A DNA stretch of 64,000 nt from NCBI GenBank assembly GCA_024681775.1, contig JAILAF010000109.1, forward strand, positions 1 through 64,000, given 5' to 3'. Positions 10,032-16,897 of this stretch are shown here, piece by piece. The notes beneath the pieces are model-generated. The model searched no databases. It was given only the letters and a program-made list of their open reading frames with translations, and was not told the origin of the DNA. Source of the stretch: Lachnospiraceae bacterium (GTDB lineage: Bacteria; Bacillota; Clostridia; Lachnospirales; Lachnospiraceae). Both the position numbers and the translations under genes were made by a program. Numbering within the stretch: position 1 is the stretch's first letter; the number at the start of each line of letters is the position of its first letter.

Positions 10032-11060
10032 TTACAGCTGTAAGTCTTCCGCATAGATGAAAGAAATCACATCCCTGGGCGGCGTTTCAATATATGCCCT
10101 CTCCCGGTGCATGAACGATACGATTTCCTTCTTTGTCATTTTCCCCAATTTCTCAATCACTTCATCCAGTATCGATATATCACCCTCTGTCAGTGACGGG
10201 AAAGAGGTCTCTTCCTTCAGACAAAAATGATATGCGTTGGCTTCTCCCATATCGACTTCTTCGCAAGGAACCCCCTTGAGATCGATGATGGAATCATGCG
10301 CCACAGGAACCGCCCCCATCGGGAGCGCCTGGTATACCAGGCCTGTGATCGCATGCCCCGTTCTCTTGAAGGATAGAGCATCCGCATACCACATCAGTTT
10401 CATCAGTTTAACCTTGTACAGCGAGGTGATCCGGGAGGAAGAAGCAAAATATCTGATCACATCTACTACTTTGTCCAAAGAAAGCTCCGTATTCCCGTGG
10501 TAATCACCTTTTTCAAGAAACCCGGCGTAGCTGGCTTTGATTGCTTTCCTGAGATAATAATCCTGGCTGGCCTCAAGCAGTGATGACGCCCTCCCGAAAT
10601 ACTTCCGATACGCATCCTCTGAAAGCGTGCCGCATGCTGCCTGCAAAAGCGCTAAATACCACTCCGGATCACGCTCAATCTTTTTCAGGATTGAATCATG
10701 CGCTCTGTCCTGTACCTGGTGGCTCTCATATCTGGTGATCGTTTTACCGCCCCACCCCAGCAATGTGCTAAAATCACTCTGCGTAATCCCGTATTTGGCA
10801 CGAATATCGGCGATTTCCTTTGAAGAAAGCAGACCTTGCGATTTCCGATAAGCATCCTTCACACGGATATCGTTTGCCGCCATTTGCTCCTCGTTCTCAT
10901 AAAACTCATCCGCCAATTCACAATACTCATAAACGGCATCAAAACTGACTTCGACTTCCTTGAAGATTGTATGGTCCCTGACCTGAACCGTTTTTACTTC
11001 ATGCTCTTGCATACAGCATATGCACAGTCTTCTTTCCCTCTTCAAGACTTTCATGCCCAT
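10032..11060 (-). CDS. Type II TA antitoxin-like protein: MqsA-like Zn/HTH N-terminus plus Panacea (DUF4065) domain
   Basis: 342 aa; CxxC (CICCMQEHE), MqsA-like HTH (SSKEIADIRAKYGITQSDFSTLLGWGGKTITRYE), C-terminal LYKVKLMKLMWYADALSFKRTGHAITGLVYQALPMGAVP typical of SocA/Panacea. Confidence 0.85.
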   Translation of the reverse strand: MGMKVLKRERRLCICCMQEHEVKTVQVRDHTIFKEVEVSFDAVYEYCELADEFYENEEQMAANDIRVKDAYRKSQGLLSSKEIADIRAKYGITQSDFSTLLGWGGKTITRYESHQVQDRAHDSILKKIERDPEWYLALLQAACGTLSEDAYRKYFGRASSLLEASQDYYLRKAIKASYAGFLEKGDYHGNTELSLDKVVDVIRYFASSSRITSLYKVKLMKLMWYADALSFKRTGHAITGLVYQALPMGAVPVAHDSIIDLKGVPCEEVDMGEANAYHFCLKEETSFPSLTEGDISILDEVIEKLGKMTKKEIVSFMHRERAYIETPPRDVISFIYAEDLQL

Positions 11061-11072
11061 GAAAGATCCCCC

Positions 11073-11513
11073 TTATTTCTTCCGATACGGAAACATGTCA
11101 TCTGTAAACGCCTGCTCTGCATAATGAAATGACATTACATACGTGTTGGCAACACCATATTGTCCCAATAATTCAACACGGATCTTAATATATACGTCTT
11201 CGTTACCATTGTACACCTTTCTGAATTCGCGCATCTCACTTCGCTGTGGAAATCGGATATCCTTCACTGTCCGCATATACTCTTCCACAGTGAGCGTCAG
11301 CAATTCTCTTTTGAGTGCATCCTCCGGATTTTCTTTTGGGAAAAGTTTTTCGACAGTATACCTGTTCGTGTATCTTCTCGTTCTCGTCTCATCAACACGC
11401 CTTGTTGCCTGGAAAACTATCCGTGCTCCGCTTTAAATAGCATACTTCAAATCCTGGAGGTACGCCCTCACCTCTAACTCCGTTTCAATACGAGCGTTTG
11501 ATTCATCCCCCAA
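11073..11513 (-). pseudogene. Toxin-like partner (MqsR-like candidate) interrupted by an in-frame TAA at 11433-11435
   Basis: Continuous minus-strand reading frame ...VRAYLQDLKYAI*SGARIVFQATRRVDETRTRRYTNRYTVEKLFPKENPEDALKRELL...VYIKIRVELLGQYGVANTYVMSFHYAEQ..; possible TTG start at 11513 (or ATG at 11540). Confidence 0.7.
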
Positions 11514-14398: not shown

Positions 14399-14446
14399 GT
14401 CGATCCCTTCTCAGCATAATCGCACGCTCTCGCAAATCAGCCAGTC

Positions 14447-14479
14447 AAACTTGTTTGTGCAATCTGTACAAACAAGTTT
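14447..14479. repeat. 33-bp palindromic repeat, copy 1 (downstream end of the ART-like module)
   Basis: AAACTTGTTTGTGCAATCTGTACAAACAAGTTT; one mismatch to copy 2; overlaps the stop codon of 14478-14957. Confidence 0.95.
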
Positions 14480-14957
14480 AATACTTTCCCCGAGACGATA
14501 TCACTTCCTTCATTCTCAGGTTATTATCAAAAATATCTTCGGTCTGACCATTCATTTCCAATAAACTCTGTACACACCATTCAGGGTCCTGCGTGTGAAA
14601 AGAGTAATAAACATCATTTAATTGCTTATAGGGAAATAGTCTCATCGCAAATTTAGTCGTAATTCCTCTTGTATACGAAACATACCTGTACATATAGCCC
14701 ATCCAAAACAACGCATTGGGAGAATACTTGATCTGGCCGTAATCGGATTCTCCAAATTGTTTTTGAATACTTTCTATTCCTTCATTTACATCAAGTGTCA
14801 AGGAAGAAACATCGTTCTCATCCATTTTCTTCAAAAAATCAGAGTGCACATACCTTCTCAAGAAAACGGCGGTAGAGCATTTTAACTCAGTAGATTTTTC
14901 AAAAATCTTTCCCTGATACTCTGCCAATAATAGGCCATCATGATCAAATGCTCTCAT
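14478..14957 (-). CDS. Hypothetical partner (candidate antitoxin) of the upstream ART-like protein
   Basis: 159 aa; 4-bp ATGA overlap with 14954-15802. Confidence 0.6.
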   Translation of the reverse strand: MRAFDHDGLLLAEYQGKIFEKSTELKCSTAVFLRRYVHSDFLKKMDENDVSSLTLDVNEGIESIQKQFGESDYGQIKYSPNALFWMGYMYRYVSYTRGITTKFAMRLFPYKQLNDVYYSFHTQDPEWCVQSLLEMNGQTEDIFDNNLRMKEVISSRGKY

Positions 14958-15802
14958 TGCAATAGCTCCTCGATGTACAGTCCCTCTTTAAATTCTCTTT
15001 TTGCTAGTTTGAGCTTTGTATCTATCTCATATCCTCGCTCAACCAGTGCTTTCCTGCAATCCTCTCGTTCCGGATCAGATAAATAGTATTTCTCTATCGG
15101 AACGCATTTCTTTAATGCCCTCTCTGTTTTTATAATATATTGAAGTCCTAAGCTGGACGCTGATAACGAATGAAGGGCTACATCTGCATTAATCTCTCCT
15201 TCTGCAAATTGCGACATTACATAAAACATTTTGTTATCCGCAATTGGCGCAATAACAACATCTGCATCTTTTATTTTCTTTATAATTTTTTGAACCATGC
15301 TACTTTCAGCATATTCTTTTATCGTCCCCCTGAAAAAACAGATTGCAAGCATCCAGTCTAAAGAACAATCAAATTCAACTATCTTCAATCCATCAAAAGA
15401 GCACCTAAATGAATACACCGAAGCCGTATCATATTCGCACACAAACGATAATGCCTGATTGTATGTCTGGCCCAAATAAAAACCATTCCCAAAATCGCAA
15501 TTATCCCTCGACCCGAAAACTGTCACTTCAGATAGTCCATATTTGGATCCATGAAACAGTACGTTCCCATATTTTTCTTTTATTAGTTCCTCCTTAACCG
15601 AATTAAGTCGATAATTCTGGTCGTATATGTACGAGTACAATTTTTCACAGACTGCTTTTGATGCTGTGCCCTTTTTTTCTATCGCATCAAGCGTTGCTCT
15701 CGAGATCCCGGTTGATTCTGATAACTCCAGCTTATTAATTCCTTCTGCTTCGATAATGAAGCCTATGTCTTCTTTGACCCTGTATTCACAATCAATTTTC
15801 AT
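14954..15802 (-). CDS. HTH plus DUF3990 (ADP-ribosyltransferase-fold-like) protein
   Basis: 282 aa; N-terminal HTH (INKLELSESTGISRATLDAIEKKGTASKAVCEKLYSYIY), then LFHGSKYGLSEV..NCDFGNGFYLGQTYNQALSFV characteristic of DUF3990. Confidence 0.75.
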   Translation of the reverse strand: MKIDCEYRVKEDIGFIIEAEGINKLELSESTGISRATLDAIEKKGTASKAVCEKLYSYIYDQNYRLNSVKEELIKEKYGNVLFHGSKYGLSEVTVFGSRDNCDFGNGFYLGQTYNQALSFVCEYDTASVYSFRCSFDGLKIVEFDCSLDWMLAICFFRGTIKEYAESSMVQKIIKKIKDADVVIAPIADNKMFYVMSQFAEGEINADVALHSLSASSLGLQYIIKTERALKKCVPIEKYYLSDPEREDCRKALVERGYEIDTKLKLAKREFKEGLYIEELLQ

Positions 15803-15836
15803 TTTTGGGCGACTCCTTATAACCTCTTATGTTTGG

Positions 15837-15882
15837 ATTATATACAAAAAAACTTGTTTGTACAATCTGTACAAACAAGTTT
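15837..15882 (-). promoter_or_regulatory. Promoter of the HTH-ART module; 33-bp palindrome copy 2 (15850-15882) supplies the -35
   Basis: Minus strand TTGTAC-17 nt-TATAAT; palindrome AAACTTGTTTGTACA GAT TGTACAAACAAGTTT. Confidence 0.8.
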
Positions 15883-15894
15883 TTTCATTTTTCC

Positions 15895-16059
15895 CTACAC
15901 CCCAGGTTTACAGATCGGGAGGCCTCGGATGCACACCCCGATGTGATATTTCTCGGAAGGATTTCCCTTCTTCCAAAAAACAATCGTATAGCAGAACTCC
16001 GCTTTCGGATTGATGTGATTCAATGTATCCATTTCCTGTTTAAGCGTTTCGAAATCCAT
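15895..16059 (-). other. Possible 54-aa small ORF
   Basis: MDFETLKQEMDTLNHINPKAEFCYTIVFWKKGNPSEKYHIGVCIRGLPICKPGV; read by eye, below the ORF-track cutoff. Confidence 0.35.
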
Positions 16060-16102
16060 CTTTCATCCTCAGAAAAAAAGTATCATCCCACAATCGCCGC
16101 GC

Positions 16103-16897
16103 CTATTTCACTCCCTTCGCCACAAACATCCCGTACTCCTTGGGCAAGTCGATGGCGCCGTCCACCTCGTGGGCCTTCAGCACTTCACGGATCCGATCCG
16201 TGGAGAGGTCCGCGATATCGCGGAAGGATGCCATGCTCCCCAGGTAGGTCACCAGATCCTCGGGATCTGTGATGTGGAGGGAATCCTCATAAAACAGAGG
16301 CTGCACCTCTGAGAAAAATGCCCCCAGCTTCTCCCCGCCGTTTTCCATGGTAAAGTTGTGATTCGGATGGAAGCTCTCTCCATCAAGCAAAAGCCACTCT
16401 GCCAGACGATCCACGAAATTGTGCTCCCCCAGGGTAGCACAGTAGAAAGCACCCTCCGCCCGGAGGACGCGTCGCACCTCCCGGAGTCCCTGCATGAGAT
16501 CCGGCACATGATAAAGCATCATGTTTGCGATGATCACATCAAAAGAGCCGTCCGCAAAGGGCAGTGCCTGGATATCCGCCACGCGATACTCCACGTTCCC
16601 ATGCGCCCCCACATTTCCCTTCGCAGTCTCCAGCATCCCTTCGGAAAAATCCGTCAAAACCAGCTGCCCGCACCGGGCGATCACGTCCTCATGCCCGCTC
16701 CAGGTACTGCCCGTACCCACACCGATCTCCAGCACGCGCATCCCTTCCCGGATATCATAGTTGGAGACGATCCAGGGGCCAAACCCCTGCCGGTTCGTGG
16801 AATACCGGTCGTGAAATCCGATCCTCGTATCCAGTCCTTTGGATGTGGCGTACTGCGCCTTTACCGCCTCCGTATCATTGGAACTGCCAATCTTCAT
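16103..16897 (-). CDS. Class I SAM-dependent methyltransferase
   Basis: 264 aa; VLEIGVGTGSTW, ADIQALPFADGSFDVIIANMMLYHVPD. Confidence 0.9.
   Translation of the reverse strand: MKIGSSNDTEAVKAQYATSKGLDTRIGFHDRYSTNRQGFGPWIVSNYDIREGMRVLEIGVGTGSTWSGHEDVIARCGQLVLTDFSEGMLETAKGNVGAHGNVEYRVADIQALPFADGSFDVIIANMMLYHVPDLMQGLREVRRVLRAEGAFYCATLGEHNFVDRLAEWLLLDGESFHPNHNFTMENGGEKLGAFFSEVQPLFYEDSLHITDPEDLVTYLGSMASFRDIADLSTDRIREVLKAHEVDGAIDLPKEYGMFVAKGVK

What the first reader, a model, noticed from the sequence alone, without database searches (positions are those of the whole stretch)
14447..15882. HTH-ART (DUF3990) two-gene module bracketed by 33-bp palindromic direct repeats
Seen: AAACTTGTTTGTACAATCTGTACAAACAAGTTT at 15850-15882 and the same sequence with one mismatch at 14447-14479. 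Both are in the same orientation with identical asymmetric centres, and they lie at the two ends of a coupled pair (ATGA overlap). The upstream copy provides the -35 of TTGTAC-17-TATAAT; the downstream copy begins at the stop codon of the second gene. Knowledge: DUF3990 belongs to the ADP-ribosyltransferase-fold group, and ART toxins occur in TA/defence modules. Inference: either an autoregulated toxin-antitoxin pair with a duplicated operator, or a cassette whose ends are recombination sites. The partner (14478-14957) would be a new antitoxin type.
Basis: partly seen in the sequence, partly recalled or inferred. Interest (0 to 1): 0.78.

Follow-up and report, generated by a model that had tools for sequence, protein, structure and literature searches.

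The report
Toxin-like gene pair between duplicated operators
Two coupled genes, a DNA-binding ADP-ribosyltransferase-like enzyme and a small partner of unknown fold, look like a self-repressing toxin-antitoxin or phage-defence module found at many sites in gut and rumen bacteria, unusual because its DNA switch is copied again at the far end and single copies occur where the genes are absent.

Summary
Two near-identical 33-bp palindromes bracket a minus-strand operon (HTH-DUF3990, then a 159-aa partner) and occur nowhere else in this genome. In 50 relatives at about 40 chromosomal contexts the two genes are adjacent wherever the contig allows a check. The upstream palindrome is an operator-promoter: 45 loci carry it, with TTGnAC inside and a perfect TATAAT 17 bp further on in 36. 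The downstream copy has no promoter, usually supplies the partner's stop codon, evolves faster and is often truncated or lost; in 10 of 23 loci it matches its own upstream copy better than the nearest relative's, so it is re-duplicated or converted locally. Single palindromes without gene traces, and truncated modules, occur in genomes lacking the module. Best reading: a self-repressing toxin-antitoxin-like operon of the PDC-M42 defence-candidate type with an operator duplicated at its end, allowing clean deletion that leaves one operator. Site-specific recombination is not shown: cassette-free rpsI sites and the nearest relative carry no palindrome. The partner is in no Pfam or NCBIfam family and has no PDB fold match, but PADLOC already models it (PDC-M42B). 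Toxicity and phage defence are untested.

The parts
15850..15882 (-). upstream palindrome, inferred operator overlapping the -35 box
   Evidence: conserved 30-76 bp before the ART start in 45 related loci
15860..15865 (-). -35 hexamer TTGTAC inside the palindrome
   Evidence: read
15837..15842 (-). -10 hexamer TATAAT, 17 bp after the -35
   Evidence: read; perfect in 36 of 45 loci
14954..15802 (-). HTH-DUF3990 protein, 282 aa, putative toxin and repressor
   Evidence: predicted structure pLDDT 93.4
15569..15802 (-). N-terminal Cro/XRE-type helix-turn-helix domain (residues 1-78)
   Evidence: weak HTH_3 match; Foldseek matches to HipB, SinR and C.Esp1396I DNA-binding domains
15107..15559 (-). 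DUF3990 ADP-ribosyltransferase-like domain; H84, Y109 and Q221 invariant in 40 sequences
   Evidence: Pfam E = 3e-30; Foldseek match to the RES toxin
14478..14957 (-). all-helical partner, 159 aa, PDC-M42B-like, putative antitoxin
   Evidence: predicted structure pLDDT 93.7; no significant PDB or viral fold match
14447..14479 (-). downstream palindrome, promoter-less operator copy overlapping the partner's stop codon

Best explanation
This is a self-repressing toxin-antitoxin-like operon of the PDC-M42 defence-candidate type. The HTH of the ART protein, alone or with its partner, binds the upstream palindrome over the -35 box and keeps the operon off. The ART domain is the likely toxin and the all-helical partner the likely antidote. 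A second, promoter-less operator copy marks the downstream end of the module and overlaps the partner's stop codon. The two direct operator copies behave as recombination handles: they are converted to the same sequence inside a locus, and deletion between them removes the genes and leaves one palindrome. Shown by sequence: anatomy, promoter overlap, linkage, faster decay of the downstream copy, local similarity of the two copies, single palindromes and truncated modules. Inferred: HTH binding, toxicity, antidote role, phage defence, the deletion step itself, and the route by which the module reaches new sites.
For: The two genes are adjacent wherever the contig shows both. Flanks differ at about 40 contexts, with a few shared sites such as rpsI. 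The upstream palindrome overlaps a conserved promoter in 45 loci; downstream copies lack a -10. More distant relatives (L148, L149, L152) keep AACTT...AAGTT-type palindromes upstream of the ART start. In L051 and L052 a changed palindrome at both ends goes with a changed HTH recognition helix. Within-locus spacer difference averages 2.39 against 3.96 when loci are shuffled, 0 of 5000 shuffles as low; in 10 of 23 loci the two copies differ by 3 or fewer, against 4.2 and 5.0 to the nearest relative. Single palindromes with no gene trace in L078-L082, 5' or 3' remnants in L083-L085 and L201; control pattern 0 in 299 genomes; genomes with single palindromes hold only distant DUF3990 proteins or none. 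ART H84, Y109, Q221 invariant; the ART model resembles the RES toxin of Xre-RES.
Against: No toxicity, binding or phage data. No pair of relatives was found in which one has the module and the other exactly one palindrome at the same place; in the closest comparisons (G008, G716/G724) the breakpoints lie outside or inside the palindromes. Deletion between 33-bp repeats 1.4 kb apart by ordinary recombination would be rare. The reuse of the downstream position at the stop codon could equally reflect a regulatory role. The nearest-relative comparison over all 23 loci is not significant (Wilcoxon p = 0.23), and loci are related by descent.
Confidence: 0.55

Rival explanations
1. The downstream palindrome is a working second operator. 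A repressor complex bound at both ends loops the operon or acts as a roadblock, tightening repression and insulating the module from neighbouring transcription; the single palindromes are leftovers of no importance.
For: Fixed position at the partner's stop codon, and a copy at both ends even where the palindrome sequence has changed (L051, L052). HTH-operator co-variation.
Against: The downstream copy is missing, truncated or decayed in many loci and evolves faster than the upstream one: L028 and L031 have identical upstream copies but downstream copies differing at 6 positions. It does not explain single palindromes in genomes without the protein.
Confidence: 0.25
2. The palindrome is a lox-like core site (13-bp arms, 7-bp spacer) of an unlinked tyrosine recombinase; the module is a cassette that integrates into and excises from single sites.
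For: Arm-spacer layout; identical asymmetric centres; single sites without genes; outer halves better conserved than inner halves in 14 loci against 5, with 8 ties, as hybrid attL and attR sites would be.
Against: No recombinase in the module. Cassette-free rpsI sites in six congeneric genomes and the closest relative carry no palindrome. The inner/outer contrast comes largely from one clade. The palindrome overlaps the promoter in nearly all loci, which an operator explains by itself.
Confidence: 0.12
3. The palindromes are transcription terminators or RNA hairpins that merely look like operators.
For: Near-perfect dyads; T-rich flank after the upstream copy (mean 4.6 T in 8 nt).
Against: The upstream copy lies upstream of the -10 and would not be transcribed from that promoter; the downstream copy has few T after it (2.2 in 8); the arms are conserved in sequence well beyond what an A+T-rich hairpin needs.
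Confidence: 0.06

Closest known systems
PADLOC PDC-M42 (phage defence candidate, PDC-M42A + PDC-M42B)
   Same: Same two-gene pairing of a DUF3990 protein with a PDC-M42B partner; 38 of 39 partner sequences match PDC-M42B
   Different: The partner scores only 1.5e-6 and the ART protein scores better against PDC-M13B than against M42A; here an HTH is fused to the ART and a palindrome stands at both ends (whether other PDC-M42 members share these was tested only for the relatives)
Xre-RES type II toxin-antitoxin
   Same: ART-like toxin fold together with a Xre-type DNA-binding fold controlling the promoter; Foldseek rank 2, TM 0.60 over the RES-complex chain
   Different: In Xre-RES the HTH is on the antitoxin and the toxin is separate; here the HTH is fused to the ART, and the partner is a distinct all-helical protein
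DarTG and CmdTAC ART-based systems
   Same: ART-fold enzymes in toxin-antitoxin or phage-defence modules (papers listed)
   Different: DUF3990 is a different ART family; no macrodomain or NADAR partner; partner fold unmatched in the PDB
Cre/lox-type cassettes and integron cassettes
   Same: Direct repeats of an inverted-arm site bracket a small gene unit, and single sites occur elsewhere (lox layout from general knowledge)
   Different: No recombinase found; the site is also the promoter-operator; no clean one-copy empty site shown

Membership tests
PADLOC PDC-M42 | DUF3990/PDC-M42A protein next to a PDC-M42B protein | tested here: met
   M42A E = 9e-15 and M42B E = 1.5e-6 in the window; M42B in 38 of 39 sequences
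PADLOC PDC-M42 | protection against phage | not testable with these tools
   candidate status only; no paper found on PDC-M42
type II toxin-antitoxin system | two small genes in one operon with a palindromic operator over the promoter | tested here: met
   ATGA overlap; palindrome over the -35 in 45 loci; binding itself not tested
type II toxin-antitoxin system | one protein toxic, the other neutralises it by binding | not testable with these tools
   needs expression and rescue assays
DUF3990 / ADP-ribosyltransferase fold | DUF3990 domain above the curated cut-off, with conserved ART motifs | tested here: met
   105 bits against a cut-off of 32.2; FHGS, GxGFYLG and Q(Y/F)I motifs with H84, Y109, Q221 invariant in 40 sequences
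Xre-RES | RES domain protein with separate Xre antitoxin | tested here: not met
   no RES Pfam match; HTH and ART are one protein
site-specific recombination cassette (lox-like or integron-like) | empty site with exactly one repeat at the same locus in a relative | tested here: not met
   cassette-free rpsI sites and G008 have no palindrome; single sites lie elsewhere or at rearranged junctions
site-specific recombination cassette (lox-like or integron-like) | cognate recombinase | not tested
   none inside the module; no systematic search for one in trans was made

The most novel reading that the evidence does not exclude
A toxin-antitoxin or defence gene pair that uses one palindrome both as its repressor operator and as a recombination site, so that one DNA site switches the genes and releases or exchanges the whole module, with single sites in bacterial genomes as its docking or exit marks.
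Probability: 0.12. Interest if true: 0.85.

Novelty: new variant of a known kind. Interest (0 to 1): 0.52.

Why it matters
It gives an uncharacterised DUF3990 defence candidate a concrete mechanism to test: an ART enzyme that carries its own DNA-binding domain, a partner with no known fold, and an operator copied at the end of the module. The end duplication and the leftover single operators offer a readable record of how small defence modules are lost, and make loss or exchange of such modules testable by PCR.

Tried and rejected
Common dispersed repeat: rejected, only two copies in the genome. Pre-existing target palindrome at the site: not seen at cassette-free rpsI sites or in G008. Other genes carried between two palindromes: none seen in 299 family genomes at up to 1 mismatch. 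Phage or plasmid carriage of the pair: no phage match, one weak plasmid match. Palindromes in phage contigs: four exact matches against none for the reversed control pattern, but L095 aligns without a gap to a primase homologue and looks like chance; searches for palindrome-free homologues of the L092 and L094 genes settled nothing. Empty-site search in Butyrivibrio: rearranged or truncated copies, no clean empty site. G361 differs from the single-palindrome genome G209 by the palindrome plus a neighbouring glycerate kinase gene, so it is not a clean empty site. Literature: no paper on a DUF3990 toxin-antitoxin pair or PDC-M42 in the held library.

Full report
What is there. On the minus strand of the window, a 282-aa gene (15802-14954) and a 159-aa gene (14957-14478) overlap by ATGA. 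The first has a weak N-terminal HTH match and a strong DUF3990 match. The second matches no Pfam or NCBIfam family but matches PADLOC PDC-M42B, and the first matches PDC-M13 and PDC-M42A models. A 33-bp palindrome stands upstream (15850-15882) and, with one change, downstream over the partner's stop codon (14447-14479); shuffles give none, and no other copy exists in the assembly.

Relatives. A scan of bacterial genome contigs gave 50 loci with 42-88% identity. The partner follows the ART gene in every locus where the contig extends far enough and the ART gene is not a fragment. Flanking DNA is shared only by small groups, such as five loci downstream of rpsI, so the module sits at about 40 different chromosomal contexts. 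Sources are mostly Lachnospiraceae, with Erysipelotrichaceae, Anaeroplasma and Bacilli, by record title; some MAG labels look wrong.

The upstream copy is an operator-promoter. In 45 loci a palindrome AACTTGTTTG-N11-CAAACAAGTT (up to four arm mismatches) lies 30-76 bp before the ART start. Its right half holds TTGnAC, and a perfect TATAAT follows, mostly at 17 bp, in 36 of the 45 (the script's -35 hexamer is offset by one base, so its 16-bp spacing is 17 bp). Downstream copies mostly show no -10 there (2-3 matches of 6). Among more distant pairs found with the partner profile, L148, L149 and L152 keep palindromes of the AACTT...AAGTT kind upstream of the ART gene, none has a clear downstream copy. 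In L051 and L052, where the palindrome sequence differs, the HTH recognition helix also differs (ISR-TLD becomes ISL-TL-DA), and both ends carry the changed palindrome. This is what a DNA site read by the fused HTH would do; binding itself is inferred.

The downstream copy. It is recognisable in 23 loci at up to 4 arm mismatches and usually begins at the second base of the stop codon (TAAACTTG). It evolves faster than the upstream copy: L028 and L031 have identical upstream copies and downstream copies that differ at six positions. It is truncated from the right in L014, L023, L025 and G724. Yet inside a locus the two copies resemble each other more than when loci are shuffled (spacer difference 2.39 against 3.96, 0 of 5000 shuffles as low), and in 10 of 23 loci they differ by at most 3 bases, while the nearest relative's copies differ by 4.2 (upstream) and 5.0 (downstream) on average. 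The paired test over all 23 loci is not significant (p = 0.23), because the other loci have decayed downstream copies. The reading is repeated re-duplication or conversion followed by decay.

Single palindromes. In 299 genomes of the family, 14 carry the palindrome and a composition-matched control pattern has no match. Six of the 14 carry the module, five have a perfect-arm palindrome with no trace of the genes on either side (L078-L082), and three have a 5' or 3' remnant of the module (L083-L085). A further remnant (L201) and a further single palindrome at a gene-copy junction (L210) turned up in Butyrivibrio relatives. Genomes with single palindromes have only distant DUF3990 proteins or none, so these are not targets of a resident copy of this repressor. 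Deletion between two direct operator copies would explain them.

Tests of a site-specific cassette. The palindrome can be drawn as 13-7-13, like a lox site, and outer halves are slightly better conserved than inner halves (14 loci against 5, 8 ties), as hybrid attachment sites would be, but the signal is mostly one clade. Against it: rpsI-downstream regions of six congeneric genomes without the module have no palindrome, and the closest relative, G008, 97% identical around the site, lacks 1,705 bp that extend beyond both palindromes, so that the neighbouring genes overlap. In G716/G724 the module is rearranged with breakpoints shortly before the upstream copy and inside the downstream copy. 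No one-palindrome empty site at a module locus was found. I keep this as a minority reading.

Proteins. AlphaFold models are confident: partner pLDDT 93.7, all helical, with no significant PDB or viral match; ART protein pLDDT 93.4, five N-terminal helices then an ART-like domain. Foldseek links the ART model to the Xre-RES toxin-antitoxin complex (probability 1.00, TM 0.60 over the target, E = 0.005) and the HTH to HipB, SinR and controller proteins; none passes E = 0.001. FHGS, GxGFYLG and Q(Y/F)I motifs, with H84, Y109 and Q221 invariant in 40 sequences, resemble the H-Y-(E/Q) triad of PARP-like enzymes (general knowledge). The enzyme therefore looks active; this is an inference.

Verdict. 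A self-repressing HTH-ART and partner module of the PDC-M42 type, toxin-antitoxin-like by anatomy, with an operator duplicated at its end that serves, most likely by ordinary recombination, for conversion and clean loss. The novelty is the fused HTH, the end-duplicated operator and the leftover single operators; the gene pair itself was already on a candidate list.

Noticed in passing
window 10032-11303, minus strand: A second toxin-antitoxin-like locus about 3 kb away: a 342-aa protein with a SocA/Panacea domain and a sub-threshold MqsA match, beside a 76-aa ORF with no Pfam match.
   Followed up: partly
L081:4755-4787: A single palindrome stands just upstream of a locus similar to the Panacea-type pair of the window's genus (71% DNA identity to L086 over 1.5 kb).
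   Followed up: partly
window 14399-16103 versus L073/L086: The closest relative lacks 1,705 bp here, so the methyltransferase frame runs into the rhomboid gene start.
   Followed up: yes
L083 8071-10827: Next to rpsI, a module remnant is followed by a 4Fe-4S protein, a DNA methylase-like and a restriction-like ORF, suggesting a shared insertion hot spot; names of these ORFs are by eye.
   Followed up: partly
L202 (G500): Two incomplete halves of the module about 3 kb apart around a run of N; may be an assembly artefact.
   Followed up: no
L094:4372-4402: In a large viral contig the palindrome overlaps the stop codon of a dUTPase-like gene, the same geometry as at the partner's stop.
   Followed up: partly
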